NCBI GenBank assembly: GCA_028554795.2
Contig: JAPYKE020000279.1
Coordinates: 528,352-592,351, forward strand
From: Sinohyriopsis cumingii
Lineage: Eukaryota > Mollusca > Bivalvia > Unionida > Unionidae
Direction of reading: 5' to 3'
DNA: 64,000 bases
The notes beneath the pieces were generated by a model, which ran no database searches, was not told the origin of the DNA, and was given only the letters and a program-made list of their open reading frames with translations. Below, in pieces: positions 1 to 64,000 of this stretch (positions are counted from its first letter, which is position 1; each line of letters opens with the position of its first letter). The translations under genes and the position numbers were made by a program.

Positions 1-818
1 CCAGGATGGGCTGTTTTCGCCTGTACAAGTTTTCTGGCTTCTGGATAGGGAATATTATTTGTGTATTTTACCCTCTGAATTTCCTTCTCCTGTTTCCAGG
101 TATCGCAATCCTTGGAATTTGCGTGGTGCTCTTTTCCACAGTTGACACAATGCGGAGTTGCTCTACAGTCAGCTTCCTGATGAGAATTTTCTCCGCATCG
201 GCCACATATTTGGGTTTTAGAACAGCGGTCTTGGTGATGGCCGTATTTTTGACACTTATAACATCGAAGGGGGTTTGGAATGTAGATGTCAACCTTCACT
301 TGCAAGAAGCCAACTTTGACCACTTTGGGTACAGTTGGCTTGTTGAAGTTGAGTACAATGGTGTTGGTGTCCTGCAGGTTATTATTACGTTTGATACGTA
401 TTCGACGGACTGCAGTGACACCTTCACTTTTCATTCCTTCAATGATATCTGCGTCGGTGACTCCAGCCAAGTCACGACAGCGAATCACGCCTTTGGACGT
501 ATTGAGTGTGGTGTGAGCGAATGAGGTCACTGGAATATCGAAGAAAGATTTTATCTTCTTGATATTGTCTGTCTGACCTCGTCGCTCACATTCCACGAGA
601 AGGCAACCCGATTTCATTTTTTTGACACTCTTTGGCGTACCAGTCAAACCTGTAATTGTTTTCTCGATCACAAACGGAGAGAGTGAAGCAAGGGATTTTG
701 CGGCATCTTTAGATTGTATTACCATGAAGCGTGGAAATGAGTCCACACTACATGGTTCGTCGTCCGAGTCAGATAAAGTTTTCGTACGTTTATTTTGAAT
801 TTTTTTGGAAATATCCAT
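1..818 (-). CDS. LINE ORF1 (gag-like, CCHC knuckles), partial
   Basis: The reading frame starts at the ATG at 818 and runs off the window after about 272 codons. It covers the acidic/basic N-terminus, the RRM-like region and the three zinc knuckles. There are no indels relative to the complete copies. One private change lies in the first zinc knuckle: the codon before the Asp-Arg-Cys triplet (about position 233) reads Gln here and Glu in the other copies. It is a nonsynonymous difference that spares the metal ligands. Confidence 0.85.
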   Translation of the reverse strand, partial: MDISKKIQNKRTKTLSDSDDEPCSVDSFPRFMVIQSKDAAKSLASLSPFVIEKTITGLTGTPKSVKKMKSGCLLVECERRGQTDNIKKIKSFFDIPVTSFAHTTLNTSKGVIRCRDLAGVTDADIIEGMKSEGVTAVRRIRIKRNNNLQDTNTIVLNFNKPTVPKVVKVGFLQVKVDIYIPNPLRCYKCQKYGHHQDRCSKTQICGRCGENSHQEADCRATPHCVNCGKEHHANSKDCDTWKQEKEIQRVKYTNNIPYPEARKLVQAKTAHP

Positions 819-1359
819 TTTGGCTAGATTAAAAATTCAGCACCCGTGCTCCCCACCCACCAAGGAGCCCAACAAGGGGACACTTTTCAAGTGTCAGGGA
901 TACACAGATGCTATACTCAGTTGATAAAATTACCTTTGATTGACCTTGAAGTCGCCAATTTCTAAGGTCGGTAAAATTACCCCCGGATTGACCCGTTAAG
1001 CCACCGCCTTCTAGAAAGTCTTCTAAGACTTGGAAAAGGGAAAGATAAAGGACTAGAATACAGGGGCAACGGTGGTATCAAGAGAGATACTAGGAGAAAG
1101 ATAAAGGAGGTGAGAGAGTAAATAAAGACTTCCTAGGGCTCGGCGTGACCAGCCGATTTGTCGGAACCGGGCCCATCCCGACCACCCGTCTAAGAGAAGT
1201 AGAGGCCAAAGTAGTGTATTGCAGGGAAAGCCTCTGCTCAACTACCAGGATCCTTTCCTCCCCCGACACGGGACGCAACCCACGGTAAACAGGTTGCCTC
1301 TACTTAGTCGCCTTTTACGACACGTAGCGAGGCACGTCGGGCCAATTCTACAACCCCGG
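819..1359 (-). promoter_or_regulatory. LINE 5' UTR / internal promoter region
   Basis: About 540 bases lie between the ORF1 ATG and the 5' terminus. The stretch is more GC-rich than the surrounding spacer and carries a run on the - strand (CGTGTCGTAAAAGGCGACTA, around 1306-1325) that I associate, from memory, with 5' regions of I/Nimbus-like LINEs. LINEs of this group usually carry an internal pol II promoter here. No promoter element was identified directly. Confidence 0.55.
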
Positions 1360-1372
1360 AAGTATAAAAAGG
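1360..1372. repeat. Target-site duplication (right side) of LINE
   Basis: The 13-mer AAGTATAAAAAGG follows the 5' end of the LINE. The identical 13-mer sits at the 3' side of every LINE copy (12180-12192, 28748-28760, 45309-45321, 61894-61906). A perfect 13-bp duplication on both sides marks target-primed insertion. Confidence 0.92.
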
Positions 1373-1820
1373 AAGTGTCAAACTCTGCAAGTTATCATCA
1401 ATAGTATAGCAAGCCTGTCCATCTCTCAGATGCTTTCCACAAACCACACCACAGAAAGATTGTAAAACCGATCGTTCCAGAATCAGCCAGTGGTTATTAT
1501 GAAACATCACAGATGAGAGCAGACCTGCTGAGGTATTGTGATTTGGCCATTAGATCGAACACGTTTGCTGGGAAAGGGTTAAAATATCTTGACGGACCTA
1601 TTGTCAAGGCTTTAGCTGCAGTAGAATTTGTGTACTCTGACGAAGTCGACAGAGTAAAGCTTGAAAAAAATCGAAATCTGTGAATGGTTAAATAAATATT
1701 CAGCCTACGTTGAATATGTCAGATGGTTCCCTTGCTGTCACTTCATTCAAAGGGTGTTGGAACTCTATTCATCACCATGGACACATTCAGAGTGTACCTT
1801 TTCATCAGAGAGAATGCAGT

Positions 1821-1825
<5 letters not shown>
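1373..1825 (+). pseudogene. Gene-like exon fragment, right half, split by LINE
   Basis: Unrecognised protein-like frame. From 1405 to the TGA at 1681-1683 it reads 92 codons that look like ordinary protein (for instance the stretch ADLLRYCDLAIRSNTFAGKG, followed by helical-looking sequence). Continuing one frame over past an A7 run (about 1665-1671), it reads another ~50 protein-like codons (SAYVEYVRWFPCCHFIQRVL and so on) to the TAA at 1823-1825. So a frameshift in the A run is likely. A TAG at 1402-1404 is a further break. Upstream, the same frame continues through the target-site duplication into the left half (12105-12192 in the next unit), with no stop between. It is identical in the four units apart from one substitution before the TAG, so selection cannot be judged. 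No family assigned. Confidence 0.5.
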
Positions 1826-1856
<31 letters not shown>

Positions 1857-1857
1857 T
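1821..1857. repeat. (TAA)n microsatellite, 12 units
   Basis: Pure TAA/ATA tract. Its length drops by one triplet per step across the array: 12, 11, 10 and 10 triplets in units 1-4. It directly precedes a repeat remnant with the GCGCTTTACA motif. Confidence 0.9.
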
Positions 1858-2400
1858 AGAACTTTGTATAGCGCCTCATCTTTAGAAGCTCTAAGCGCTT
1901 TACAATATTAGACAACACCTATAAGATAAAAAAAACATATATAATGAAATGATTACAAAAACAAACACCATGAAATTAGAAAACATAAAAAACATGCTGA
2001 AAATATTTAAGGTAGGAAACATTATTAGGCTTTAAGTTTGTTCTTGCAGTCGAAATAAGTGAGTTTTGAGAGCACTCTTGAATGGGATCATTAATGAAAT
2101 GATTACAAAAACAAACACCATGAAATTAGAAAACATAAAAAACATGCTGAAAATATTTAAGGTAGGAAACATTATTAGGCTTTAAGTTTGTTCTTGCAGT
2201 CGAAATAAGTGAGTTTTGAGAGCACTCTTGAATGGGATCACTGTGTCTTTGTGTCTAAGTTCAGTGGGCAATTCATTCGACGTTGCTGGGCCCTGGTATG
2301 CAAAAGAACGCTGTCCATATGTCTTTGTTTTCAAAGTGGGAATAATGAGTATAAATTATTTAGTTATAAATATTTTGTAAGGATCAAATAGACCGCACAC
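1858..2400. repeat. Dispersed-repeat remnant with GCGCTTTACA-type head
   Basis: After the TAA tract comes TATAGCGCCTC then GCGCTTTACA, and further on a GC-richer stretch around 2205-2340. This head, next to a TAA tract, resembles (from memory) short interspersed repeats common in marine invertebrates and fish. I cannot name the family. The 150-bp tandem duplication lies within it. Confidence 0.4.
1942..2240. repeat. 150-bp tandem duplication (two copies)
   Basis: The segment starting TAATGAAATGATTACAAAAA at 1942 is repeated from 2092. The two halves (1942-2091 and 2092-2240) are essentially identical and end in AATGGGATCA. It is present in all four units, so it predates array expansion. Confidence 0.92.
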
Positions 2401-4077
2401 AACAACTCCTTCGTAAATGGGTTAGAATTCTCGACCACCGGCATCTAGGTAGAATAAGAGATTTGATTATTGTGACAGTGGGCAAAAATATATAAAGTAT
2501 GCTAAATAATGTACTCAGAGAATTTCCTTCTATTGAGTGTTGTTCACGTTAACGCCGTTATCGATCGATACACTGATTTTGATTTTGGTATTATTTATAT
2601 TTTTCTGTGCATATAGCCATATAAAAATTCGTTACATGTGAAAAGTGATGATATTTAGTGCGTGTAGACAATTTTGAATGATACGAAAGTCCAAGAGATG
2701 GAAGCTTACTAAAACAAGGTTAAGTAGATTGAGTTTATGACATGAATCGTTTCTCATTTAGTTGCATCTCAGTTAGTGATAACGAATATCTTAAGCTGAC
2801 TATAGTCGTATGACATGAACTGACTGGACATTCCTTTCCACTGCCATTTGTTTTTCTTCAGGTTGAAACAATAGATGCATTAATTGAGAAAAGGAAGGAA
2901 TGATTGTAATTTATAAAAGGAAATATAAATGCATTGATTCCGGTTTAATAATAAATTAGTGATGTATATGTTCTTTTAAATGGTAATACAGACAAATGCA
3001 GTATAGTTGTTATACAAATAGTAATTAAATATATTTAATAGATCAAAAGATCAAAATGAGCATTTCAATATTTCTTATGCCCATACCAAAAAGCGAAATT
3101 TTTTAGAATGTTTTTGGAAGTAAGCAAAGGGCTTCGAATCTCATTGATCAGACAGTATTTGTAGCTAAAAGCAGGTAGAAATTAGACAAATTTTGAACTT
3201 TGAAATGTGATGGTATTGGGTCAACAATTTGGCCTCATTACTATCTCAGTGATTCCTATGTCTTTTTTTTCAATCCACAATGCCTAACAAGAAACTTAGA
3301 TAACTAGGTGCTGAAATCGGTTTACTCTCTCTCTCTCTCTTTCTCCTCCGTGTGCTGAACGCACCCATACCTTCTAAGACTAAAAATTCACTCTAGCTTT
3401 GAGTTATTGTACAGTTCCTTTGTATATGGCGCTTCGAACTGTTCTTAGATATCAAACAAATACTTACAAAATTACCCGTGTGAAATATAAAATAACCGCA
3501 TTGTTGACGGATAAATTTAAGAGGACAAGCGGAATACCATTGATGCACCTTCTGCTGTTAATCCATTTTTGTTCATCGTATTTCGTCATTACTGCCATTC
3601 AAAAGTTGCATACATTTGGTCCATTATATCAATCAATAGTCAGATCTTTCATACTAAGCAAAAAAGTAGGATATGTTTCCAGAGTAACGTCGAAAATTAG
3701 CACTGTCTGAATCAACATGCAAAACAAGCCGAGATCAAGCTGAAATATGAATCAAAGGCTTTTTATGGTACAGTTTAATAAGGACATTTCTTAATTTTCG
3801 CCAACCCAAAAGTGTGCCGCACTAAGTTTTCAACGTTATAGTACATCATAAATATAGTGAATATTTACGAGAATTTGAAGTAGTTAGTTTTAAGATAGAC
3901 ATACTGATACATATTGGAGTAGTAGCACTCTGGCGACAACAATGACGCTCGGGCGACAATGGGAACTAACATTACGCCTCTAGTTTGAAAACTAACACTC
4001 CCTCGTCAATTTAACATGAACCATATGTTTAACATTAGTATGACATTCTGACCTCAAGGGAAAGGATAATGTTGAAC
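2401..4077. other. AT-rich spacer, no gene recognised
   Basis: I see nothing I can assign. It holds a short (CT)n run near 3325-3340 and a 94-codon open frame on the + strand from an ATG at 3426 to 3710 with a hydrophobic stretch. The frame has no family resemblance and unremarkable composition, so I treat it as chance. The stretch ends exactly where block A begins. Confidence 0.6.
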
Positions 4078-4994
4078 ATGTCCATGTGTTAAATGAGCAT
4101 CAGTATTTACAAAGGGGAAATGCAATGTTCAAACCACGTCTACTAACCAACGCAAACTTTTGACTGAGCAACATACATTCATCTTCTGAGTCACACCAAC
4201 ATTTACTAACCATCACGCCGCTTAAACTCACCAGCACCTAATCTCCACTTGAACAACACATACTCACGAACATGCCGTTTTAGTTGCCCAAACCCAAACT
4301 TATTAATAAACTACAAAGCAATGGGATGCTAACACATACACACAACCATCCATGAAAGGGTAGAAATGATCATGCACACACATCAACAGAAGCAGCCATG
4401 AATAGCAGTACTGCTCATATACTGTATATAGAAACATATTTAATTACTATCGTACATCTAGTGAAAGGAAAGAAATATGTAGGAGTGCTTTCATATATAT
4501 ACAAAGTTACTAATATATCTCTAAAGGGTAAGATTATCCATTCACTATGCACACAAACTTGCTACCACACTAAAGGCAACGGGCACTCATACACAAAACA
4601 CATATAGTTATATCCTGATTTGAGTGGGACGTCGTTTAGGCCACCAAGTTAATAGTAATTCCTACGCATTATTTGTCCTACATAAAACCCACCTTGGATA
4701 AGAAAAGAACATATTTAGAAGGAACTGACATGGCCGTTCTGAAGTATTGGTTGCATCAAAATCAATGAAAGATATCCAGTATTCGACAGCAGTGTCTTGG
4801 TATTTAATCGGAACTATACAGTATTGTGCTGACATGCTATTACACCGAATGCATACAGACATACATAATGATTGTAGAGAATTATGTCACCAACAGAAAA
4901 CGTAGTACTTAAACAAATGACCCCAAACTTAGATAATCTGATTATAAGAGGTAATTCTGGAGTTGTTTAATACATTTCGAGTATTCATAGTCGA
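4078..4994. repeat. Block A (left copy of 917-bp direct repeat)
   Basis: Near-identical to 8711-9629. The two copies flank the gypsy fragment. Identity starts at ATGTCCATGTG and ends at CATAGTCGA. This copy differs from A' by a few substitutions and by GCAGTACTG versus GTGTTGTACTG (a 2-base length difference, about 4406). It is not an LTR: the true LTR with primer site lies inside, at 8350-8710. On its right end it is joined abruptly to gypsy RT codons. Confidence 0.9.
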
Positions 4995-7729
4995 CTCCAT
5001 GGACTGCTTGAGGGCCGAATGAGGCCTTGCTCTAGCATTTCATCCAATATTGCTTTTACCTCTTTCCGTTGCGCGAAAGGTATTCTATATGGCCGTTGTT
5101 TAATTGGTGTCTCCGAAGTTGTCTTTATACTGTGAGTTAAGATGTTTGTTCGACCAGGCCTAGTTGTTAGAACATCCTGAAATTCATTGCAAAGATTTCT
5201 AATATCCTCTCGTTGGTCTTTTGTCAAGTTTACCCCCAGCTTAACGCCAGCATCACCTTCACCTGCTCTTGGAGGAAAGTCAATATCCACACCATCGTTC
5301 TCGTCTGCCTTCGTCGCCAGCAGCACAGCACGCTTGTATCCACGCAGCAAGTTTATATGATAGGTAACTGTACCGCGCCTACCGGGTACAGATACCTGGT
5401 AGTTAACATCGTTTACCTTCCGGACCACACGATAAGGTCCCTGCCATTGTGCCTTCATCTTGGACGAACTTGATGGCAAGAGAATGAGGACTTCATCTCC
5501 AGGACTGAATTCTCGTGTTTTCGTGTGACGATCATACAGTGCCTTGATTTTCTTTTGGCGATCCAACAGATTATCTTTGACAAGAGCCCCGATGTCAGCC
5601 AACTTCTCACGCATTTTCACAACATGCTCCACAGTTGACTTCCTTACATCTTCCTCTCCTGTAAACAAGCCTTGTAAAATCTGCATTGGCCCCCTAACTG
5701 GCCAACCATACATCTCTAAGGGTGCAAATCCAGTTTCCTCATGTGGGACTTCGCGGTATGCAAACAACAAAAATGGCAACATCTCATCCCATTCATTCTT
5801 GTTGTCTATACAGAACTTCCGCAACATTGACTTCAAGGTCCCGTTAAAACGTTCTACTTTTCCATTTGCTTGCGGGTGATACGGCGTTGTTGTAACTCCA
5901 CGAATACCCACTAGTTCATACAGCTGTTTCAATAAGGTGCTAGTGAAGTTGGTCCCTTTGTCTGTTAATATGACCCTTGGAAAACCAACACGGCTAAACA
6001 GCTCAATCAGTGCTCTAGCTACATTAGTTGCCTCCATATCCTTCAAAGGAAAAGCTTCGGGATACCTCGTTGCATCATCAACAACCGTCAGAATGTATTT
6101 GTGTCCAGACTTCGTTCTAGATAACGGTCCAACAATATCCATTGCAATTTTTGAGAACGGTTCTGTTATCACCGGTGGGCATACCAGTGGTGCTTTCTCA
6201 CCTGCAGTCTGTTTTGCTGTCATCTGGCATTCATGACACGATGTACAATATTTTTTTACATCGGAAAACATTCCAGGCCAAAAGAACGATTGGAGAATCC
6301 TCTCTTTTGTTTTCTCCAAACCCAGGTGACCTGCAAGGGGTCGATCATGTGCCAGCTCCATTACCATTTTCCGTAATCCTGCTGGTACAACTATTTGCTC
6401 CCCTCCATGTGAACCATCACCAGATTGCCATTTCCGTCGCAAAATATCATTCTCCCAGAAGAATGCCATTGGCTCCTCCTCAGCCTCTTCACGAGTAGCA
6501 AAGGACTTCTCTCTAATACTTTGCAGTGAAATATCCGCAATCTGTAGTTTCGACAACATGTCCGCATTCATTGCTGAAAGTTCGTCAACTTCAATGTCAT
6601 CACGCTGATCAGGATCTTCTGTCTCGATGCTGTTGTTGACAAAGTCATTCTTACCCTCATGCTCACATTGATCAGTATTTTCCACAGTCCTCTCATCGTC
6701 GAGTCCTTTTAACAACGACCTCGTAACAACAAATGACCCTTTCTTGCTAAGTATATCCATCCCCAATAGGGCTTCAGCGGCTAGATTTGAAACAAGACCC
6801 ACTTGCGCTGGTCCCTTATAATATGTAGTGTCGATATTTACCACAGCCAACTGTGCGGTAAATGGCTGACCCACTGCTGTGTATAACTTAACCTTGTGCC
6901 CCTCCAGCTTGCAACTCTCATCAACAAGATCTTCTCTTATCAAGGCCATATCTGATCCAGTGTCCTTCACAAACATGATCTCGCGCCCATTCACACATCC
7001 TGTTTCTGAAATAAACTTTTCACCAATTGTTGGCTTAACAAAACAAGTTGCCGGATTGCCACGATGTTTCATGTCATCTGTTGGACAATACCTTGCAATA
7101 TGTCCCCATTGTTTGCATCGATAACATTGCCTATTCTTCTGCTTGGACTGGTCTTTTATCGATGTTAGTTTTGCTTGCTGCTGTAAGTTCTGACAATTCA
7201 TCTTGTTACGATTTACATTTATATTTTGATGAAACTTAATCCGCTGCCCTTGCTGTTGTAAATTTGTGGGAATATAATCTTCCGCGGCCTCTACGACTGG
7301 ACTAGAGCCCTTGTTCCTCCTAATCCACTGTGCTTGATCTTGTGGCAAGGCTTTCAAGAAAAATTCCTCACGAAGACAAATAACTGGGTCATGATCTTCC
7401 AAGAAACGCTTTATGTGCTGATCAATCCTGGCCATCAGACCACGATACGTCTCAGTGCTTTCCTTCTTCATGCTCAACAGTGCCGTGAAATGTTCATGCG
7501 GTCTCTTTCCAAAACGATCAATCAGTCCTTTCCTGAGTTCCAGGTAATCACCACAAGCTTGAGTTGCAACATATCTAGCCTCCCCTGTCAACATAGTTCT
7601 TAGCTGTAATACTTTCAACTCGTCAGACCAATTGGCATGTTTTGCAATTGATTCAAACTCTGCTAGGAAAGTCACAATATCCTCTCCTCGTTCATGGTCA
7701 TATGCATGTAGCTTTACTTTTAATGGCAT
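4985..7729 (-). CDS. Gag-protease-integrase-(start of RT) polyprotein, 914 aa
   Basis: One open frame from the ATG at 7729. Residues 1-190 are a retrotransposon gag region. A CX2CX4HX4C zinc knuckle lies at 202-215. The aspartic protease has DTGS at 256-259 and LLGMD near 321-325. The integrase zinc domain follows (H461, H468, C495, C498). The integrase core has D531, D590 and E626 with D-35-E spacing, and a GPY/F-like module lies at about 761-798. From ~832 the sequence is the N-terminus of a gypsy RT, stopping within the conserved Ser-Pro-Trp motif at 908-912. There is no RT between protease and integrase. This copy ends two codons later at a nonsense codon (TGG to TGA) not shared by units 2-4. 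The frame could encode Gag, protease and integrase but no polymerase. Confidence 0.9.
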   Translation of the reverse strand: MPLKVKLHAYDHERGEDIVTFLAEFESIAKHANWSDELKVLQLRTMLTGEARYVATQACGDYLELRKGLIDRFGKRPHEHFTALLSMKKESTETYRGLMARIDQHIKRFLEDHDPVICLREEFFLKALPQDQAQWIRRNKGSSPVVEAAEDYIPTNLQQQGQRIKFHQNINVNRNKMNCQNLQQQAKLTSIKDQSKQKNRQCYRCKQWGHIARYCPTDDMKHRGNPATCFVKPTIGEKFISETGCVNGREIMFVKDTGSDMALIREDLVDESCKLEGHKVKLYTAVGQPFTAQLAVVNIDTTYYKGPAQVGLVSNLAAEALLGMDILSKKGSFVVTRSLLKGLDDERTVENTDQCEHEGKNDFVNNSIETEDPDQRDDIEVDELSAMNADMLSKLQIADISLQSIREKSFATREEAEEEPMAFFWENDILRRKWQSGDGSHGGEQIVVPAGLRKMVMELAHDRPLAGHLGLEKTKERILQSFFWPGMFSDVKKYCTSCHECQMTAKQTAGEKAPLVCPPVITEPFSKIAMDIVGPLSRTKSGHKYILTVVDDATRYPEAFPLKDMEATNVARALIELFSRVGFPRVILTDKGTNFTSTLLKQLYELVGIRGVTTTPYHPQANGKVERFNGTLKSMLRKFCIDNKNEWDEMLPFLLFAYREVPHEETGFAPLEMYGWPVRGPMQILQGLFTGEEDVRKSTVEHVVKMREKLADIGALVKDNLLDRQKKIKALYDRHTKTREFSPGDEVLILLPSSSSKMKAQWQGPYRVVRKVNDVNYQVSVPGRRGTVTYHINLLRGYKRAVLLATKADENDGVDIDFPPRAGEGDAGVKLGVNLTKDQREDIRNLCNEFQDVLTTRPGRTNILTHSIKTTSETPIKQRPYRIPFAQRKEVKAILDEMLEQGLIRPSSSPWSRL

Positions 7730-7738
7730 TGAAGATGT

Positions 7739-8062
7739 TTATTCAGTCGTGTTTTCTTGACGTTTTACTTTTTCTAACTCAATTTCCAAACGCTTCATTT
7801 CTAATCTTAATATCTCTCTTTCCGTTTCCCATTCAAACTCCTGTCTTAATTCAAATTCTCTTTCATTTTTCTTTGCGCTAGTTTTTCGCTTTGTTTCCTT
7901 GGGTGGTTGCATGTGCTCAAGGTTAAGTTCCTCTTCATACTCCATAACTTCATTATCTGTAAATTCCATCAAATTCTGTGCTGCCGCTTTTCTTCGTGGT
8001 CGTCCTGAAGCAACCGTGGCTCCCTCAACTTCGACATCATCAGCAACCGACATAATGACCAA
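7739..8062 (-). CDS. Gag N-terminal ORF, 107 aa, charged coiled coil
   Basis: The ATG at 8062 opens a frame rich in Glu, Arg and Lys. Residues ~60-100 look like a coiled coil. It ends at TAA 7741-7739. Only three codons later, in the same frame, the 914-residue gag-pol frame begins. All units carry this stop. It could be a natural stop (separate or readthrough product) or an ancestral nonsense mutation of one longer Gag. Confidence 0.65.
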   Translation of the reverse strand: MVIMSVADDVEVEGATVASGRPRRKAAAQNLMEFTDNEVMEYEEELNLEHMQPPKETKRKTSAKKNEREFELRQEFEWETEREILRLEMKRLEIELEKVKRQENTTE

Positions 8063-8324
8063 CTATATGTACGTACTGTAAGTTCTATCACTGTATTCAC
8101 AGCCACTGGACTAGCATTAATTATCTACGAGTTTCTGGGCTTACACGTGTACACTCGTTACAGTGATACACACTTTGCACTTAACAATTAACAACTGTAC
8201 GTTATACACACAGTACAACCAGTCACTGCTAATATCACAGATTCACTGAATTCACAGCTTTCAGAATTGTCAAACACAATTCCAACGTATTGAAAAAAAT
8301 TCCAAATAATTCACACAGGATTTT
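8063..8324 (-). other. Gypsy 5' leader
   Basis: Untranslated stretch between the primer-binding site and the first ATG, about 260 bases. No open frame or further motif was recognised. Confidence 0.6.
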
Positions 8325-8346
8325 GGAATCCGTACCGCTGCCACCA
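8325..8346 (-). promoter_or_regulatory. Primer-binding site, tRNA-Leu type
   Basis: The - strand reads TGGTGGCAGCGG and then a partly matching continuation, three bases inside the LTR end. The 12-mer is complementary to the CCA-tailed 3' end of common eukaryotic tRNA-Leu (...CCGCTGCCACCA). This fixes the orientation of the element and the inner edge of its 5' LTR. Confidence 0.8.
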
Positions 8347-8349
8347 AAA

Positions 8350-8710
8350 TGTTACATTCGGGTTCAAAGGACACACAAACACCAAGTAAGGGTCCTACAA
8401 CTTTATGTAAAATAAAGCTAAAATCTTAAAAAATAAACTAGAAAAAAAGTGTTCATTACAGTACCAAGCCCAGCTAAAAACTGCTTGCTCTATCACTCTG
8501 CTCTTGTTTTAGTAAGGGTTAGACACATGGAATTCTAATTAAATTAACATTTGTGCCTTATCCAGGCCCAGATAGCCATGGGAAGATAAACAACAGCACT
8601 GAACCTGTTGACAGTCTCTGGTATCAAATATCCAGAATGCTGGGAATAATGTTCTGCTGTCACTACTAACAATCAGATTCTGCTAGAATATGATACAGGC
8701 CCTTATAACA
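8350..8710 (-). repeat. Gypsy 5' LTR, 361 bp
   Basis: It begins TGTTA and ends TAACA, perfect short inverted termini, and sits three bases from the primer-binding site. Its outer edge is exactly where block A' starts. No partner LTR is found at the other end of the fragment. Confidence 0.85.
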
Positions 8711-9629: not shown

Positions 9630-10259
9630 TTAGAGAACAATGATATGTAGAAAATGGCAATTTTCTTTAGCACAGCATCAACGAATTTTGTAAACATGCC
9701 CAAAGATCGGGGCATGCTGATTGGTTTTAGTTTTGCGACTCAACTGCCTGTCCCCATTCTCGCTTGGACAGCTAATAGCTGCTTAATCATCGTACCTCTC
9801 CTGCGCTTTTAAAGATACTGTATGAATAGCATGGTGGTATAGTTTATGTGTGCAGTTAGCTTTCATGGAAATCGCATGTAAGATACAAATGACGTTTCAT
9901 ACGCAATGCCAGCATCATTGGTAACAAAGTTGTAATAAAAACATAGCCATAAAATAAAAGATACAAGTCCTCTGTCTCCCCAGGATTCTTATGATCGTGG
10001 TGAATCATGTGTTACCTCTCTTTCTACATCATTCTCTCTCAATCACTCTCTCACACTTTCTCTCTCTCTCTCTCTCTCTCTCTCCTTGTATATCATGGAA
10101 ATTGGTCCCGAAGCTCGAGATGATTAATGAAAATGAAGATCGTTGCCAAACGGTCAGTTTAACTATTTCGATGTCAAACGGCAATCAGTTCCAAAGTAGA
10201 ACCGTAAGAAAATAATTGTCACAGATAATAAGAGCCAACATTTTTTGACATTGTTGCTA
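9630..10259. other. Spacer with (CT)n tract
   Basis: No gene recognised. A (CT)n microsatellite occupies about 10059-10084. Its length varies between units (far longer in unit 4). Open frames here merely read through the CT repeat. Confidence 0.6.
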
Positions 10260-54686: not shown

Positions 54687-57421
54687 CTCCATGGACTGCT
54701 TGAGGGCCGAATGAGGCCTTGCTCTAGCATTTCATCCAATATTGCTTCTACCTCTTTCCGTTGCGCGAAAGGTATTCTATATGGCCGTTGTTTAATTGGT
54801 GTCTCCGAAGTTGTCTTTATACTGTGAGTTAAGATGTTTGTTCGACCAGGCCTAGTTGTTAGAACATCCTGAAATTCATTGCAAAGATTTCTAATATCCT
54901 CTCGTTGGTCTTTTGTCAAGTTTACCCCCAGCTTAACGCCAGCATCACCTTCACCTGCTCTTGGAGGAAAGTCAATATCCACACCATCGTTCTCGTCTGC
55001 CTTCGTCGCCAGCAGCACAGCACGCTTGTATCCACGCAGCAAGTTTATATGATAGGTAACTGTACCGCGCCTACCGGGTACAGATACCTGGTAGTTAACA
55101 TCGTTTACCTTCCGGACCACACGATAAGGTCCCTGCCATTGTGCCTTCATCTTGGACGAACTTGATGGCAAGAGAATGAGGACTTCATCTCCAGGACTGA
55201 ATTCTCGTGTTTTCGTGTGACGATCATACAGTGCCTTGATTTTCTTTTGGCGATCCAACAGATTATCTTTGACAAGAGCCCCGATGTCAGCCAACTTCTC
55301 ACGCATTTTCACAACATGCTCCACAGTTGACTTCCTTACATCTTCCTCTCCTGTAAACAAGCCTTGTAAAATCTGCATTGGCCCCTTAACTGGCCAACCA
55401 TACATCTCTAAGGGTGCAAATCCAGTTTCCTCATGTGGGACTTCGCGGTATGCAAACAACAAAAATGGCAACATCTCATCCCATTCATTCTTGTTGTCTA
55501 TACAGAACTTCCGCAACATTGACTTCAAGGTCCCGTTAAAACGTTCTACTTTTCCATTTGCTTGCGGGTGATACGGCGTTGTTGTAACTCCACGAATACC
55601 CACTAGTTCATACAGCTGTTTCAATAAGGTGCTAGTGAAGTTGGTCCCTTTGTCTGTTAATATGACCCTTGGAAAACCAACACGGCTAAACAGCTCAATC
55701 AGTGCTCTAGCTACATTAGTTGCCTCCATATCCTTCAAAGGAAAAGCTTCGGGATACCTCGTTGCATCATCAACAACCGTCAGAATGTATTTGTGTCCAG
55801 ACTTCGTTCTAGATAACGGTCCAACAATATCCATTGCAATTTTTGAGAACGGTTCTGTTATCACCGGTGGGCATACCAGTGGTGCTTTCTCACCTGCAGT
55901 CTGTTTTGCTGTCATCTGGCATTCATGACACGATGTACAATATCTTTTTACATCGGAAAACATTCCAGGCCAAAAGAACGATTGGAGAATCCTCTCTTTT
56001 GTTTTCTCCAAACCCAGGTGACCTGCAAGGGGTCGATCATGTGCCAGCTCCATTACCATTTTCCGTAATCCTGCTGGTACAACTATTTGCTCCCCTCCAT
56101 GTGAACCATCACCAGATTGCCATTTCCGTCGCAAAATATCATTCTCCCAGAAGAATGCCATTGGCTCCTCCTCAGCCTCTTCACGAGTAGCAAAGGACTT
56201 CTCTCTAATACTTTGCAGTGAAATATCCGCAATCTGTAGTTTCGACAACATGTCCGCATTCATTGCTGAAAGTTCGTCAACTTCAATGTCATCACGCTGA
56301 TCAGGATCTTCTGTCTCGATGCTGTTGTTGACAAAGTCATTCTTACCCTCATGCTCACATTGATCAGTATTTTCCACAGTCCTCTCATCGTCGAGTCCTT
56401 TTAACATCGACCTCGTAACAACAAATGACCCTTTCTTGCTAAGTATATCCATCCCCAATAGGGCTTCAGCGGCTAGATTTGAAACAAGACCCACTTGCGC
56501 TGGTCCCTTATAATATGTAGTGTCGATATTTACCACAGCCAACTGTGCGGTAAATGGCTGACCCACTGCTGTGTATAACTTAACCTTGTGCCCCTCCAGC
56601 TTGCAACTCTCATCAACAAGATCTTCTCTTATCAAGGCCATATCTGATCCAGTGTCCTTCACAAACATGATCTCGCGCCCATTCACACATCCTGTTTCTG
56701 AAATAAACTTTTCACCAATTGTTGGCTTAACAAAACAAGTTGCCGGATTGCCACGATGTTTCATGTCATCTGTTGGACAATACCTTGCAATATGTCCCCA
56801 TTGTTTGCATCGATAACATTGCCTATTCTTCTGCTTGGACTGGTCTTTTATCGATGTTAGTTTTGCTTGCTGCTGTAAGTTCTGACAATTCATCTTGTTA
56901 CTATTTACATTTATATTTTGATGAAACTTAATCCGCTGCCCTTGCTGTTGTAAATTTGTGGGAATATAATCTTCCGCGGCCTCTACGACTGGACTAGAGC
57001 CCTTGTTCCTCCTAATCCACTGTGCTTGATCTTGTGGCAAGGCTTTCAAGAAAAATTCCTCATGAAGACAAATAACTGGGTCATGATCTTCCAAGAAACG
57101 CTTTATGTGCTGATCAATCCTGGCCATCAGACCACGATACGTCTCAGTGCTTTCCTTCTTCATGCTCAACAGTGCCGTGAAATGTTCATGCGGTCTCTTT
57201 CCAAAACGATCAATCAGTCCTTTCCTGAGTTCCAGGTAATCACCACAAGCTTGAGTTGCAACATATCTAGCCTCCCCTGTCAACAGAGTTCTTAGCTGTA
57301 ATACTTTCAACTCGTCAGACCAATTGGCATGTTTTGCAATTGATTCAAACTCTGCTAGGAAAGTCACAATATCCTCTCCTCGTTCATGGTCATATGCATG
57401 TAGCTTTACTTTTAATGGCAT
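54659..57421 (-). CDS. Gag-protease-integrase-(start of RT) polyprotein, 920 aa, unit 4
   Basis: Identical in protein to unit 3. At DNA level it differs at a silent site near 55802. Confidence 0.9.
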   Translation of the reverse strand: MPLKVKLHAYDHERGEDIVTFLAEFESIAKHANWSDELKVLQLRTLLTGEARYVATQACGDYLELRKGLIDRFGKRPHEHFTALLSMKKESTETYRGLMARIDQHIKRFLEDHDPVICLHEEFFLKALPQDQAQWIRRNKGSSPVVEAAEDYIPTNLQQQGQRIKFHQNINVNSNKMNCQNLQQQAKLTSIKDQSKQKNRQCYRCKQWGHIARYCPTDDMKHRGNPATCFVKPTIGEKFISETGCVNGREIMFVKDTGSDMALIREDLVDESCKLEGHKVKLYTAVGQPFTAQLAVVNIDTTYYKGPAQVGLVSNLAAEALLGMDILSKKGSFVVTRSMLKGLDDERTVENTDQCEHEGKNDFVNNSIETEDPDQRDDIEVDELSAMNADMLSKLQIADISLQSIREKSFATREEAEEEPMAFFWENDILRRKWQSGDGSHGGEQIVVPAGLRKMVMELAHDRPLAGHLGLEKTKERILQSFFWPGMFSDVKRYCTSCHECQMTAKQTAGEKAPLVCPPVITEPFSKIAMDIVGPLSRTKSGHKYILTVVDDATRYPEAFPLKDMEATNVARALIELFSRVGFPRVILTDKGTNFTSTLLKQLYELVGIRGVTTTPYHPQANGKVERFNGTLKSMLRKFCIDNKNEWDEMLPFLLFAYREVPHEETGFAPLEMYGWPVKGPMQILQGLFTGEEDVRKSTVEHVVKMREKLADIGALVKDNLLDRQKKIKALYDRHTKTREFSPGDEVLILLPSSSSKMKAQWQGPYRVVRKVNDVNYQVSVPGRRGTVTYHINLLRGYKRAVLLATKADENDGVDIDFPPRAGEGDAGVKLGVNLTKDQREDIRNLCNEFQDVLTTRPGRTNILTHSIKTTSETPIKQRPYRIPFAQRKEVEAILDEMLEQGLIRPSSSPWSRLWILEMY

Positions 57422-57430
57422 TGAAGATGT

Positions 57431-57754
57431 TTATTCAGTCGTGTTTTCTTGACGTTTTACTTTTTCTAACTCAATTTCCAAACGCTTCATTTCTAATCTT
57501 AATATCTCTCTTTCCGTTTCCCATTCAAACTCCTGTCTTAATTCAAATTCTCTTTCATTTTTCTTTGCGCTAGTTTTTCGCTTTGTTTCCTTGGGTGGTT
57601 GCATGTGCTCAAGGTTAAGTTCCTCTTCATACTCCATAACTTCATTATCTGTAAATTCCATCAAATTCTGTGCTGCCGCTTTTCTTCGTGGTCGTCCTGA
57701 AGCAACCGTGGCTCCCTCAACTTCGACATCATCAGCAACCGACATAATGACCAA
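57431..57754 (-). CDS. Gag N-terminal ORF, unit 4
   Basis: 107 codons, same TAA. Confidence 0.65.
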   Translation of the reverse strand: MVIMSVADDVEVEGATVASGRPRRKAAAQNLMEFTDNEVMEYEEELNLEHMQPPKETKRKTSAKKNEREFELRQEFEWETEREILRLEMKRLEIELEKVKRQENTTE

Positions 57755-58016
57755 CTATATGTACGTACTGTAAGTTCTATCACTGTATTCACAGCCACTG
57801 GACTAGCTTTAATTATCTACGAGTTTCTGGGCTTACACGTGTACACTCGTTACAGTGATACACACTTTGCACTTAACAATTAACAACTGTACGTTATACA
57901 CACAGTACAACCAGTCACTGCTAATATCACAGATTCACTGAATTCACAGCTTTCAGAATTGTCAAACACAATTCCAACGTATTGAAAAAAATTCCAAATA
58001 ATTCACACAGGATTTT

Positions 58017-58038
58017 GGAATCCGTACCGCTGCCACCA
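58017..58038 (-). promoter_or_regulatory. Primer-binding site, unit 4
   Basis: Same tRNA-Leu-type site. Confidence 0.8.
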
Positions 58039-58041
58039 AAA

Positions 58042-58402
58042 TGTTACATTCGGGTTCAAAGGACACACAAACACCAAGTAAGGGTCCTACAACTTTATGT
58101 AAAATAAAGCTAAAATCTTAAAAAATAAACTAGAAAAAAAGTGTTCATCACAGTACCAAGCCCAGCTAAAAACTGCTTGCTCTATCACTCTGCTCTTGTT
58201 TTAGTAAGGGTTAGACACATGGAATTCTAATTAAATTAACATTTGTGCCTTATCCAGGCCCAGATAGCCATGGGAAGATAAACAACAGCACTGAACCTGT
58301 TGACAGTCTCTGGTATCAAATATCCAGAATGCTGGGAATAATGTTCTGCTGTCACTACTAACAATTAGATTCTGCTAGAATATGATACAGGCCCTTATAA
58401 CA
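58042..58402 (-). repeat. Gypsy 5' LTR, unit 4
   Basis: 361 bp, same termini. GTTCATCACAG near 58143 is private (others GTTCATTACAG). Confidence 0.85.
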
Positions 58403-59319
58403 ATGTCCATGTGTTAAATGAGCATCAGTATTTACAAAGGGGAAATGCAATGTTCAAACCACGTCTACTAACCAACGCAAACTTTTGACTGAGCAACATA
58501 CATTCATCTTCTGAGTCACACCAACATTTACTAACCATCACGCCGCTTAAACTCACCAGCCTAATCTCCACTTGAACAACACATACTCACGAACATGCCG
58601 TTTTGGTTGCCCAAACCCAAACTTATTAATAAACGACAAAGCAATGGGATGCTAACACATACACACAACCATCCATGAAAGGGTAGAAATGATCATGCAC
58701 ACACATCAACAGAAGCAGCCATGAATAGTGTTGTACTGCTCATATACTGTATATAGAAACATATTTAATTGCTATCGTACATCTAGTGAAAGGAAAGAAA
58801 TATGTAGGAGTGCTTTCATATATATACAAAGTTACTAATATATCTCTAAAGGGTAAGATTATCCATTCACTATGCACACAAACTTGCTACCACACTAAAG
58901 GCAACGGGCACTCATACACAAAACACATATAGTTATATCCTGATTTGAGTGGGACGTCGTTTAGGCCACCAAGTTAATAGTAATTCCTACACATTATTTG
59001 TCCTACATAAAACCCACCTTAGATAAGAAAAGAACATATTTAGAAGGAACTGACATGGCCGTTCTGAAGTATTGGTTGCATCAAAATCAATGAAAGATAT
59101 CCAGTATTCGACAGCAGTGTCTTGGTATTTAATCGGAACTATACAGTATTGTGCTGACATGCTATTACACCGAATGCATACAGACATACATAATGATTGT
59201 AGAGAATTATGTCACCAACAGAAAACGTAGTACTTAAACAAATGACCCCAAACTTAGATAATCTGATTGTAAGAGGTAATTCTGGAGTTGTTTAATACAT
59301 TTCGAGTATCCATAGTCGA
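58403..59319. repeat. Block A', unit 4 (carries A-type end)
   Basis: Has a private 2-base deletion (CACCAGCCTAATC near 58554), CCTTAGATAAG as in unit 2 A', and the A-type GAGTATCCATAG at its right end. That mosaic suggests exchange with A blocks and with A' of another unit. Confidence 0.88.
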
Positions 59320-59745
59320 TTAGAGAACAATGATATGTAGAAAATGGCAATTTTCTTTAGCACAGCATCAACGAATTTTGTAAACATGCCCAAAGATCGG
59401 GGCATGCTGATTGGTTTTAGTTTTGCGACTCAACTGCCTGTCCCCATTCTCGCTTGGACAGCTAATAGCTGCTTAATCATCGTACCTCTCCTGCGCTTTT
59501 AAAGATACTGTATGAATAGCATGGTGGTATAGTTTATGTGTGCAGTTAGCTTTCATGGAAATCGCATGTAAGATACAAATGACGTTTCATACGCAATGCC
59601 AGCATCATTGGTAACAAAGTTGTAATTAAAACATAGCCATAAAATAAAAGATACAAGTCCTCTGTCTCCCCAGGATTCTTATGATCGTGGTGAATCATGT
59701 GTTACCTCTCTTTCTACATCATTCTCTCTCAATCACTCTCTCACA

Positions 59746-59800
<55 letters not shown>

Positions 59801-59973
59801 TGTATATCATGGAAATTGGTCCCGAAGCTCGAGATGATTAATGAAAATGAAGATCGTTGCCAAACGGTCAGTTTAACTATTTCGATGTCAAACGGCAATC
59901 AGTTCCAAAGTAGAACCGTAAGAAAATAATTGTCACAGATAATAAGAGCCAACATTTTTTGACATTGTTGCTA
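59320..59973. other. Spacer with expanded (CT)n, unit 4
   Basis: The (CT)n tract spans about 59748-59799, roughly twice the length in units 1-3. It explains most of the longer spacing to the last RNase H copy. Confidence 0.75.
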
Positions 59974-60894
59974 GTTTCATGGCGCATTTGCCTGAATTAA
60001 GCGGTCCATTTCTTCTATGATTCATCAGAATTGTCTCGATCCTTGTTATGCTTGCCAATGCGAAAACTCATTGTCTAGGAGAATGTCCTGCCAACTTATC
60101 CTCTGTGTTTTCTTCATGCAGCCAATGTGAAAATAGTTCAGCTTTTTGGCATGACGTCTGTATACCATTCAAATTTATCGTGCATACAGCAGGGTCGGCA
60201 TTACAATAGCTTTGTTGACATTTAGGCTTGTTTGCAGATTGATCCCTATGCGCTCTTCTAATTTGCTTATAGTCTGCCAAAGACCACATTTACTTGAGCC
60301 GTTTCGGTGTTGCTTTCATCATAGATGTGAATTGCACCTGACAGTGTACTGCAGAGTTAGTTGAACTTATCCACTACCTCGATAATTTAGCCATTTTATT
60401 GTGATGGTAGTTTCTACATAAGGCTTTCCTGTTGTAGGTTGGTTTAGCACCAATGTCCTACTTATACTGATTGTGAGAGCAACACTGTTTCAAGCTGAAG
60501 CGAATTAGTCTATACAAATATTGGTCCCAAGCCCGAGTCGTTCTGGAGGTTGGCCAGGATTTTTTTTTAGGGTGGCAAAACTTATCAGAAGGTGGAAATG
60601 GAGTCGTGAGACTCAGAAAGAATATATTGTAGGGTCGGGGCCAAAAGAGGTTGGTAACCATTGCCATACATATTTTTGCATAACAGACACAGATTTGGGA
60701 TTCAAGAACAGTCACTGTCTTTAACATTTTGCCTTTAGTCTCCTCCAACTGAATGGAATGCCATCAATTCGGTACCTGATATCAACCCTTTTGTCACAGC
60801 CACGGTAAGCACCAGTAAGCATAACAGCGAACATCATACTGAAGAGGTGCTTCTTTGACTTCTTTGGCGACTGGATGGTTGTGATACATCATTT
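59974..60894 (-). pseudogene. Degraded LINE RT remnant, unit 4
   Basis: Has TACTGCAGAG as in units 2 and 3, plus private changes (CTCGATAATTTAG and TTTTATTGTG near 60378-60402). Confidence 0.7.
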
Positions 60895-61818
60895 TAACTT
60901 CCTTCATTTACTGAATATCGCAACTACGAATTTTGTCTGGTTTAGTATCACGGAAATAAATTAATTTTCATTGTAATTATTAGCACTTTTTCACATTTTA
61001 GTAAAAGGCATGACGCAATTATTTGTCCTCCAAAAGATAAATTATGGACTAAAATTATCATCTGTCTTCACCAAAGGTATATTATTCAATTCGTACATTA
61101 AATAGGGTCTTCTTCTATGTTTATGCTGCAGCTCCTTATCTTATTTGGCTGGATGTTTTCATTTCTTCTAAAATAAATGACACACATGTAAAGCCTTGAT
61201 GTAGTTTCAAACATTACCCACCAGCCCCACCTCCTTCCTCAAACAGCGTTCAGCTATCGGGTGTATTTCATCTGGATGTTGAAGGATGGAACTTTGCTTT
61301 TATGACGAGAAACCCTCTTGTTATAAAACTTTCCACCTACGTGTTTTATTAAAACCATTTCTATATTTCTTCAGATATCCTACCAAAGTTGTTATAAGCG
61401 ACAACGACTACTTTCTATCTTTTGTAAGCACCTGTACTGCATGATAATCAGTTTAAATTATCTTCTTCATACCAAATATTCTATATTGCTCATTTCTTAT
61501 GAAAGTGGCCTTAAGTTCCAGGATCAGGTCAGTAAACAATATAAAGTAGCCATCTGGGTTGGATTAGTATCCAAATATAGAAATTTTAGGTCTAAATATT
61601 ATTTGCATTTTGGTAGATTTAGAACAATATTTAATATAGTACATATACATATTTTAACACAGCCGTATAGCAGTATTGGAGACAAACCAAGATAAGGATA
61701 CATATTCTCTCTCCAATATTGATGGGATTTGTACCTGCGCACAACGTTATGTGAAGATGCATCATTCAATCCTTGGCGACTTTAAAATGCCGACTACAAA
61801 TCTTCAGTAATTCATTGA
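60895..61818. other. AT-rich spacer, unit 4
   Basis: Exon-like patch at 61375-61423. AATGCCGAC near 61786 matches unit 1, not units 2 and 3. Confidence 0.4.
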
Positions 61819-61906
61819 AGACGGTATATAACATCATATACTAGAAAAGGGTGCGACGTCCTAATTACAATAATGTACATTAAGGCTAACCTCAAGTATA
61901 AAAAGG
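61819..61906 (+). pseudogene. Gene-like exon fragment, left half, unit 4
   Basis: Ends with the target site at 61894-61906. AACATCATATAC matches unit 1. Confidence 0.45.
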
Positions 61907-62187
61907 ATTGATTGATTGATTGATTGTTTGTTTTTTAACGGCGCATCAGCACTGTTAGGCTATTTAGCGCCAAACAAAGTGTTATTTGTATAATCTTTTA
62001 AAACTTATAAAAGGTCCTATATCGACCAGCGATATAAAAGAACAAATGGTTGAAATTAAAAACGGTAAGATGGTAACGGTGCAAAATAAAGCTTCCCGAT
62101 CAACGGGAAATGTAAAAAAGATGAATAAGTATTAAAATGGGACGGTATATATATTGCATAAAACTGCACAAGGTGATAGCATAAAAG

Positions 62188-63063
62188 TCAGAGTTTAGAG
62201 TAAATATTTACGGCTTTCAGGAACTCTATAATACGAGTGATGTTTACAGTATCAAAAAGTTCTTTCATGCCATGCACTTTGTAATAACGATCGCGCGTAG
62301 GTTGTAGGTCAAAGCACTCTATCATAAAGTGCTTGACAGTGAATGGTTCATTGCAAGAAACGCACTCTGGTGGGTCTTCACCTTTTAGTATGTGGGTGTG
62401 GGTGATATAAGTATGACCAATTCGGATTCTTGCTATGACTATCTCCTCCCTACGAATGGTTCTGTAGGAAGGAGTCCATTCTCCTAGAGTTGGCTTGATT
62501 GCATGAAGTTTGTTATTCACGGCATCATTCCATGATGCCTGCCACTTCTGACGAAAGAACTTTCTGATACAAGGTTTAAAATCAGTATATGGTATTTTAA
62601 AATCAGATGGTTCTTGAGTAAGGGCCATTTTAGCAGCGCGATCTGCTTTTTCGTTACCTTTAATGCCAATGTGGCTAGGTAACCAACAGTATATTATATT
62701 GTGGGAGACACTCAGCTCGGCATCTTTGAAGAGTATGTTTTTTAATAATGGGTTCTCCAGTTTTCTATTGTGTAGTGACTGGAGTCCTGATAGCGAGTCG
62801 GAGAATATGATACTGTTTAAAATATGTTTCTTTTCTATATGTTGCAGAGCAAGGTCTATTGCTCTGATTTCGGCTGTAAAAATTGATGCCCCATTTGGTA
62901 AACGAACTTGCGTTGTATGATTTCCACAAACAAAGGCTGCAGCAACCTTTTCCTCATCCTTTGATCCTTCAGTGTAAATTCTGGTGTAGTTTTTAAATTC
63001 GGTGAGGAGTTCATCGTAAGAGTTGTGGAAGATAGAAGGGTTTGTTTCGGATTTTTTTTCCAT
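62188..63063 (-). pseudogene. LINE RNase H and zinc motif, copy 4
   Basis: Same protein as copy 1, including THTHIL and Glu at position 32. Confidence 0.88.
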
Positions 63064-64000
63064 CGTGTAGCGTAAAACGTACTTTTGGTTGTTTAATTAG
63101 CCAGGGTGGTGTTTCGGAGATGGATGTTTTTTGAATTTTAGAAAGATCTATATTTGTAGTGTCAAGGCTGGATGATATTCTAATGCCAAAGGAAGGTATG
63201 GCGTTTGGTTTATTTTCGTATAAAGTTTTGTATTTGGGTTGAAAAACAGCCGAAAAAGCAGGATTCAGAGGGTTTGATTTTAATTTGAGAGCATACTGTG
63301 CGGAAAGCATTTCTCTACGATGCGATAACGGTGGTTCATTCGCCTCAGCTAGAAGGCTTTCACACGGGGATGTTTTAAATGCTCCCAGAGCCAGTCTTAT
63401 TCCCTGATGATGAATTGGATCAAGCATTTTAAGATACGATTTTCTGGCTGAACCATAAACAACGCAACCATAGTCCAGTTTGGAGCGAATAAACGTTCTG
63501 TATAAATTTAGGATGACTTTTCTATCAGCACCCCAGTCAGTGTGCGCTACTACTTTAAGTAGGTTAAGTGCTTTTAAGCATTTAGCTTTTAAGTTCTTTA
63601 GGTGTGGAATAAAGGTCAGTTTTCTGTCAAAGATTATACCTAATAATTTGGGTTCCTCAACAACTGGAATAGGTGTTCCATCCAGCGTGAGGTTCGGTTC
63701 ATCGTGATGTTTTCGTAACTGACAGAAATGCATGCATACCGTTTTTAATTTCGAGAATTTGAAACCGTTTGCATTGGCCCAATTTTGAATTTTGTTTATA
63801 TTTTGCTGCAGTTGTCTTTCAATTGTATGCATGTGCTTTGACCGATAACATATTAGAAAATCATCAACGTATAAAGAGCAATCCACACCAGGAGTCAAAC
63901 ACTTGGTGATGCTATTAATTTTGATGTTAAAGAGCGTCACAGATAAAATACTGCCCTGGGGCACACCCATATCTTGCTCGTGCAGATCGGAGAGGGTAGA
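63011..64000 (-). pseudogene. LINE reverse transcriptase, partial, copy 4
   Basis: Runs from before GVPQGS through YVDD to the C-terminus. It lacks the private extra base of copy 1. Reads EEPKLLGI against EETKFLGI, and Asp for Glu just before the Met of MGVPQGS, both private. Confidence 0.87.

What the first reader, a model, noticed from the sequence alone, without database searches (positions are those of the whole stretch)
1..64000. A 16.57-kb macrosatellite built from a gene fragment and three fossil retroelements
The window is only tandem units of about 16.56-16.59 kb with very few differences. Long-unit arrays of this size that are neither rDNA, histone nor known gene clusters are rarely described, and this unit contains no intact host gene. 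It could be a chromosomal macrosatellite, a heterochromatic block or a product of circular-DNA amplification.
Basis: seen in the sequence. Interest (0 to 1): 0.8.

Follow-up and report, generated by a model that had tools for sequence, protein, structure and literature searches.

The report
Layered megabase repeat carrying trapped retrotransposons
A large animal genome, probably a freshwater mussel's, holds a multi-megabase tandem repeat whose original six-kilobase unit picked up two jumping genes and was then copied with them aboard; this kind of repeat is known, but here the order of events can still be read.

Summary
Confirmed: the window is 3.86 head-to-tail copies of a 16.56-16.57-kb unit, 0.13-0.27% different. 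It is the last 64 kb of contig C279 in a 2.90-Gb genome. 'Macrosatellite' is right; the unit's origin was missed. The basic unit is ~6.0-6.2 kb and still dominates (920 empty LINE target sites against 152 occupied). A 5.7-kb LINE entered it (14-bp TSD), and a gypsy-type element with Gmr1-like domain order (5-bp TSD ATGTC). Two units with both LTRs were found, at the array's edge on chromosome-scale C6. An illegitimate exchange with an element-free unit then cut off part of that element and duplicated 0.92 kb, giving the 16.57-kb unit. It spread in places and coexists with 14.75-, 11.77- and 4.64-kb forms. Copy bookkeeping closes (920+152+228=1300 against 1287 counted) and gives ~8.6 Mb. The 'gene fragment' is unsupported. 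Best reading: a non-genic, transposon-laden megasatellite evolving by unequal exchange; human counterparts are published (PMC2588610). New member of a known kind, with an unusually complete history.

The parts
1..16571 (.). tandem unit 1 (16,571 bp; phase arbitrary)
16572..33138 (.). tandem unit 2 (16,567 bp)
33139..49699 (.). tandem unit 3 (16,561 bp)
49700..64000 (.). tandem unit 4, cut by the window end, which is also the contig end
1360..4994 (.). satellite core, left part (A flank 1360-4077 plus X1 4078-4994); recurs in each unit
   Evidence: present in element-free ~6-kb units of L009 and L013
4078..4994 (.). X1, first copy of the 0.92-kb duplicated core segment (99.0% identical to X2)
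4995..8710 (-). truncated gypsy-type LTR element: LTR, gag, protease, integrase, start of RT
   Evidence: Pfam hits (integrase above cut-off, protease and zinc knuckle below); LTR and truncation point; RT start read by eye; RNase H lies in the part missing here but present on C6
8350..8710 (-). the one LTR kept in the 16.57-kb unit (361 bp)
   Evidence: matches the LTRs of the two longer copies on C6
8711..9628 (.). X2, second copy of the duplicated segment; begins with target-site copy ATGTC (8711-8715)
9629..12193 (.). satellite core, right part (B flank)
12180..12193 (.). LINE target-site duplication, copy 1 (AAGTATAAAAAGGA); copy 2 at 17931-17944 (= 1360-1373)
   Evidence: single site between core parts in L009
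12194..17930 (-). LINE, 5.7 kb: ORF1 with zinc-knuckle-like motifs (by eye), endonuclease, RT, RNase H; ORF2 not in one frame; ends in (GATT)n
1942..2240 (.). 150-bp direct duplication inside the core, two copies here
1405..1683 (+). 92-codon open frame, candidate 'gene fragment'; no family hit, no sign of constraint

Best explanation
A non-coding megasatellite, about 8.6 Mb in this assembly, whose only chromosome-scale location seen is C6 (the other copies listed are on small contigs). Its ~6-kb core turns over by unequal sister-chromatid exchange and gene conversion. Shown: a LINE sits at one core site in a subset of units, truncated gypsy-element fragments all end at one LTR/X junction (228 copies), and two units keep that element with both LTRs and its target-site duplication. 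Inferred: LINE first, then the gypsy element, giving a 17.3-17.5-kb unit. Supported by linked variants: a non-homologous exchange joined the end of segment X in an element-free unit to the middle of the gypsy element of such a unit, giving X1 - gypsy fragment - X2, the 16.57-kb unit, which was then amplified. Inferred: the two X copies served as recombination sites and expanded the 4.64-kb [gypsy fragment + X] block into its own array on C6. No function needs to be assumed; the unit behaves as a passenger of exchange-driven turnover.
For: Element-free ~6-kb units in L009 and L013. Genome-wide pattern counts: 1287 X, 920 empty and 152 filled LINE sites, 228 LTR/X junctions; reversed-pattern controls 0 in each scan. 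920+152+228=1300, close to 1287. I predicted the far junction of an untruncated gypsy insertion from the target site; the scan found 2 (up to 2 mismatches), both at C6:123.73-123.75 Mb. Reading there showed both LTRs, the target duplication and 1.44 kb of element missing from the window's unit, in two adjacent units (17.32 and 17.46 kb by X spacing) next to non-array DNA. X haplotypes: 'CA--' in 6 of 7 X1 copies, 0 of 9 X2 copies, and 2 of 10 full-length core copies (C74, C28) (recounted in 72). A flank of the four window units differs 0.43-0.81% from C279, C74 and C28 core units, 0.68-1.12% from C321 and C6 block-B core, and 1.18-1.74% from the two untruncated units. B flank leans the other way: 99.5% (0.38 kb) and 98.5% (2.1 kb) to the untruncated units against 98.7-99.0% and 98.2-98.3% to C279 core. 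4.64-kb array: 35 of 46 successive listed LTR/X spacings on C6 are 4620-4660 bp.
Against: X1 of window unit 2 lacks 'CA--'; I read this as later conversion. C74, C28 and one of two C321 copies have 'GATAATCTTG' just before X where the X1 copies have 'GATAATGTTG', so no sampled core unit is an exact donor. The B-flank contrast is small, and over 0.38 kb C324 core is as near (99.5%) and C6 block B nearly so (99.2%). The 11.77-kb units have an X that starts like X1 and has one X2-type base near its end, but a middle block ('CT') found in 8 of 10 core copies and in 0 of 16 X1/X2 copies, and an A flank near the untruncated units (0.81-0.99%) rather than core (1.31-1.49%); so whether they are LINE-only ancestors or excision products is open. 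The two C6 blocks are 6.4 Mb apart with no array sequence at 11 of 11 sample points between them.
Confidence: 0.82

Rival explanations
1. Extrachromosomal circles of one 16.57-kb unit were replicated by rolling circle and reinserted, making a uniform array at once.
For: Long uniform runs: 33 of 66 successive listed LINE spacings on C117 are 16.4-16.65 kb; units in the window nearly identical.
Against: Different unit types share contigs in one orientation (C117: 14.75, 16.57, 11.77 kb), the untruncated form sits at the array edge, and [gypsy+X]n arrays are explained by exchange between X copies. None of this excludes circles as one contributing step.
Confidence: 0.15
2. The array is inflated or created by assembly error (graph loops or both haplotypes kept as separate contigs).
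For: Contig C279 ends inside the array, C117 is array at both ends, and C6 block A stops at a 100-N gap; many copies lie on small contigs.
Against: Array meets non-array DNA without N at two places; units differ by private variants and by structure. True copy number and haplotype duplication were not tested (no reads).
Confidence: 0.08
3. The duplicated X arose inside one unit by replication template switching, not by exchange between two units.
For: Would give the same X1-gypsy-X2 order; the junction shares about one base (by eye).
Against: X1 and the A flank carry variants of element-free units, not of the untruncated units, so two unit types took part, unless later conversion did this.
Confidence: 0.12
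4. The unit is a multi-copy gene cluster, amplified for its product.
For: A 92-codon open frame next to a TATAAAAA motif in the core.
Against: No Rfam or tRNA hit in the window; among 10 ORFs no Pfam hit above cut-off other than retroelement domains; PDB best E 0.54; between the window and C279 core copies 4 amino-acid-changing against 1 silent codon change in 88 codons, too few to test selection but no sign of it.
Confidence: 0.04

Closest known systems
Human non-genic megasatellites with interspersed transposable elements (Warburton et al. 2008, PMC2588610, sections 7 and 8 read)
   Same: Kilobase-scale tandem units without genes that repeat the same transposon fragments; signs of unequal crossing-over; arrays beside assembly gaps.
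   Different: The TE-patterned examples described there are 5.4 and ~6 kb; here the unit reached 16.57 kb and the element-free unit, the untruncated-insertion unit and several derivatives are present side by side.
Human MaLR 'LTR arrays' with LTR6A-marked higher-order repeats (same paper, section 8)
   Same: A retroelement inserted into one monomer marks a higher-order unit that is repeated.
   Different: There the monomer itself is LTR retrotransposon; here the core is not recognisably an element, and the inserted element was cut by an exchange that also duplicated satellite core.
Human macrosatellite DXZ4 (3 kb) and gene-bearing arrays such as TSPY (20.3 kb) (PMC2588610)
   Same: Long-unit head-to-tail arrays.
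   Different: DXZ4 has no recognised TE; TSPY units carry a gene.
Plant satellites derived from tandem repeats inside LTR-retrotransposons (PMC7004042, abstract and outline seen)
   Same: Link between retrotransposons and satellite arrays.
   Different: There the satellite monomer came from the element; here the element came into an existing satellite.
Gmr1 clade of gypsy elements (PMC6238403, passage seen)
   Same: Integrase lies upstream of the RT/RNase H part.
   Different: The window's copy is truncated and passive; its RT phylogeny was not tested.

Membership tests
non-genic TE-laden megasatellite | head-to-tail units of kilobase size at high identity | tested here: met
   0.13-0.27% between window units
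non-genic TE-laden megasatellite | same transposon fragments at the same place in repeated units | tested here: met
   one LINE junction in 152 copies and one LTR/X junction in 228 copies
non-genic TE-laden megasatellite | no gene in the unit | tested here: inconclusive
   no Rfam or tRNA hit, no Pfam hit above cut-off outside retroelement domains among the ORFs tried; no transcript data
non-genic TE-laden megasatellite | copy number varies between individuals | not testable with these tools
   one assembly only
rDNA or tRNA array | rRNA or tRNA genes in each unit | tested here: not met
   0 hits in 64 kb
higher-order repeat satellite | larger unit nested on a basic monomer, both present | tested here: met
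   ~6-, 11.77-, 14.75-, 16.57-, 17.3- and 4.64-kb periods
Gmr1-clade gypsy element | integrase upstream of RT and RNase H | tested here: met
   protease (below cut-off) then integrase; RNase H (E 7e-38) in the C6 stretch that follows the window's truncation point; start of RT between them read by eye, no Pfam RT hit in the piece tried
Gmr1-clade gypsy element | placement in RT/RNase H phylogeny | not tested
   no reference set compared
centromeric satellite | binds CENH3 / lies at the primary constriction | not testable with these tools
   needs ChIP or FISH

The most novel reading that the evidence does not exclude
The array is the centromeric or pericentromeric satellite of a single chromosome (C6), with a basic unit far longer than usual centromere repeats (recall), and retroelement capture followed by illegitimate exchange is the way this centromere renews its higher-order unit.
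Probability: 0.15. Interest if true: 0.7.

Novelty: new member of a known kind. Interest (0 to 1): 0.42.

Why it matters
How retroelements become part of satellite arrays is usually inferred from end products. Here the empty unit, the unit with the untruncated insertion, the rearranged unit and its by-products are found in one genome, so the steps of unequal exchange, truncation, spread and secondary expansion can be tested unit by unit. It also marks a probably chromosome-specific and unstable locus in what is likely a freshwater mussel.

Tried and rejected
Rejected: rRNA/tRNA/snRNA cluster (nothing). Rejected as unsupported: coding gene fragment. My first idea that 11.77-kb units are simple X1-X2 excision products was weakened by their A flank and by the middle of their X and is left open. 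My idea that C74/C28-type core units are the exact exchange donor is supported by the X haplotype and the A flank as a whole but contradicted at one base next to X. A direct search for non-array relatives of the core was not made, because only the best 40 candidates were scored and array copies would fill them. Literature searches: (open-licence library only); 'Unionidae' with 'satellite DNA' gave 6 papers, none evidently on this (listing only), and 'Unionida' with 'macrosatellite' gave 0.
Full report
Observation. The window is the last 64 kb of contig C279 (592,351 bp) of a 2.905-Gb genome in 1138 contigs. It holds three full units of 16,571, 16,567 and 16,561 bp and 14,301 bp of a fourth, differing by 0.13-0.27%. 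The 24-mer distance histogram peaks at 16,560-16,585 bp, with secondary peaks at 4,633-4,635 bp and at 150 bp. These are the internal X duplication and a 150-bp duplication at 1942-2240.

Organism. Eight of C1-C19 were measured: seven are 72-193 Mb (C1, C2, C5, C7, C10, C15, C19) and C6 is 168 Mb, while C20-C22 are 0.9-1.8 Mb, which suggests 19 chromosome-scale contigs. A freshwater mussel assembly also has 19 chromosomes (PMC11162450, passages seen). The COX1 protein on C807 looks unionid to me (recall). I call it a probable freshwater mussel, not proven.

Anatomy of the 16.57-kb unit. On the minus strand at 12194-17930 lies a LINE with endonuclease, RT and RNase H and an ORF1 with zinc-knuckle-like motifs (by eye; no Pfam hit), flanked by the 14-bp repeat AAGTATAAAAAGGA; its ORF2 is not in one frame in window unit 1. 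On the minus strand at 4995-8710 lies a gypsy-type element with one LTR (8350-8710), gag, protease, integrase and, by eye, the first part of RT. Integrase hits are above Pfam's cut-off, protease and zinc knuckle below. In the longer copy on C6 the stretch beyond the window's truncation point has an RNase H domain (E 7e-38), so integrase lies upstream of RT/RNase H, the order described for the Gmr1 clade (PMC6238403, passage seen). The element is flanked by two copies of a 0.92-kb segment X (4078-4994 and 8711-9628; 99.0% identical). The rest, 1360-4994 plus 9629-12193, is the satellite core.

The basic unit. Loci L009 and L013, at 0 and 50 kb of the same contig, contain ~6.03-kb tandem units that go from core position 12193 straight to 1360, with one copy of the 14-bp site, and have X once, without gypsy or LINE. 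On C324, 63 of 74 intervals between successive listed empty sites are 6.0-6.5 kb, median 6.20 kb (positions, counted).

Counting junctions in the whole genome. X pattern, up to 3 mismatches: 1287. Empty LINE site, up to 2 mismatches: 920. Filled LINE site: 152. LTR/X junction: 228. The backward-pattern control was 0 in each of these scans. If each core unit carries one X and each gypsy fragment adds one, X should number 920+152+228=1300; 1287 were found. With 6.19 kb per core, 5.74 kb per LINE and 4.63 kb per gypsy fragment plus X, the family is about 8.6 Mb, 0.3% of the assembly. This is an estimate: deletion variants lower it, diverged sites raise it.

Location. Each scan lists only its first places (about 100). 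Among those, the only chromosome-scale contig is C6; the others are C28, C56, C70, C74, C117, C163, C279, C321 and C324, which are 0.09-1.35 Mb long. On C6 there are two blocks, from 123,726,690 to a 100-N gap at 124,128,312, and from at least 130.583 Mb to about 130,835,182. At 11 of 11 sample points between them (124.15-130.5 Mb) there was no array sequence; the gap makes the scaffold order doubtful. The left edge of block A and the right edge of block B meet non-array DNA without N.

A tested prediction. From LTR end and target site I predicted that an untruncated gypsy insertion would read ...GTTGAAC-ATGTC-TGTTAC.... The genome holds 2 such junctions at up to 2 mismatches, both at the left edge of block A; one has a one-base change in the target copy. 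The stretch read there shows two adjacent units (17.32 and 17.46 kb by X spacing) in which the element has both LTRs, the target duplication on either side and 1,435-1,437 bp lacking from the window's unit. The LTRs of each copy are 96.4% and 97.5% identical. So the insertion is probably older than the spread of the window's units (0.13-0.27% apart), with the caution that conversion among copies blurs such ages.

How the 16.57-kb unit arose. In the untruncated unit the order is A flank - LTR - internal - LTR - X - B flank - LINE. In the 16.57-kb unit it is A flank - X1 - truncated element - LTR - X2 - B flank - LINE. A break at the end of X in an element-free unit joined to a break inside the element of an untruncated unit gives this order in one step; the junction shares about one base (by eye). 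The variants agree in the main. Of 22 informative columns in X, the 'CA--' state at four neighbouring columns is in 6 of 7 X1 copies, 0 of 9 X2 copies, 0 of 3 copies of the 4.64-kb type, and in the X of core units on C74 and C28 (2 of 10 full-length core copies). Two further copies on C6 read later (L079, no gypsy; L084, X2-type) lack it. The A flank of the four window units differs by 0.43-0.81% from C279, C74 and C28 core units, 0.68-1.12% from C321 and C6 block-B core, and 1.18-1.74% from the two untruncated units. The B flank is slightly nearer to untruncated units than to C279 core, though over 0.38 kb C324 core is as near. Against the simplest form of the model: window unit 2 has an X1 without 'CA--', and no sampled core unit fits as donor at every site (C74 and C28 share the X haplotype but differ from X1 copies at one base just before X).

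Later events. On C117, of 66 intervals between successive listed LINE sites, 33 are 16.4-16.65 kb, 11 are 14.7-14.8 kb, 11 are 11.7-12.0 kb and 11 are other. The 14.75-kb form at the start of C117 jumps from unit position 16513 to 1722, so it lacks the LINE's 5' part and adjoining core. On C6, 35 of 46 successive listed LTR/X spacings are 4620-4660 bp: the block [gypsy fragment + X] has become a tandem repeat of its own, and 2 of 2 X copies sampled there lie between LTR and gypsy fragment, as does one at the end of C117 (L014). This is what exchange between X1 and X2 would give. The 11.77-kb form (LINE, no gypsy) has, in 2 of 2 copies, an X that begins like X1 and carries one X2-type base near its end (that base is in 6 of 9 X2 and 0 of 7 X1 copies). 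But its middle block is of the kind in 8 of 10 core copies and in none of the 16 X1/X2 copies, and its A flank is close to the untruncated units. Whether it is an excision product or a LINE-only ancestor patched by conversion is open.

Function. No evidence of one. No Rfam or tRNA hit in the window. Outside the retroelement domains none of the ORFs tried has a Pfam hit above cut-off. The 1405-1683 frame shows 4 amino-acid and 1 silent codon change between window and C279 core copies, too few to test selection.

Compared with what is known. Human non-genic megasatellites with repeating transposon patterns, and LTR arrays whose higher-order unit is marked by an inserted LTR6A with unequal crossing-over between units, are published (PMC2588610, sections 7 and 8 read). 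This finding is of that kind. What is unusual is the unit length without a recognised gene, and that element-free, untruncated and rearranged units and by-products are found together. In the open-licence library I found no description of it (listings seen).

Limits. One assembly, no reads, no transcripts, no relatives; copy number could include both haplotypes.

Noticed in passing
G000:C807 (5338-6678 and 21299-22639) and C1106 (13170-14507; L044): C807 holds two equally scoring COX1 genes 15,961 bp apart, as if a mitochondrial genome were written out more than once; C1106 (26,376 bp) carries a clearly diverged second COX1, either a male-type mitochondrion or another organism in the sample.
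   Followed up: partly
window 4985-8062, minus strand: Gypsy-type element with integrase upstream of RT/RNase H (Gmr1-like order); part of gag through the start of RT is one open frame of 917 aa in window unit 1.
   Followed up: partly
L047 (C6:130,831,185): Orientation flips inside the array about 4 kb before its right edge, with a jump in unit coordinates.
   Followed up: no
L046 (C6:130,585,277-130,585,874): The 150-bp core duplication appears in more than two copies here against two in the window: a local copy-number variant.
   Followed up: no
window 1360-1400: The LINE target site contains TATAAAAA, a TATA-box-like motif of the core; the LINE split the core there and its target duplication kept the motif on both sides.
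   Followed up: no
window 2185-2421, minus strand: Open frame that looks to me like a CR1/L2-type LINE 3' end (recall; Pfam gave nothing), near an ATA run at 1822-1856.
   Followed up: partly
G000:C6:124.13-130.58 Mb: The two array blocks on C6 are 6.4 Mb apart and one ends in a 100-N gap; the scaffold order there may be wrong.
   Followed up: partly
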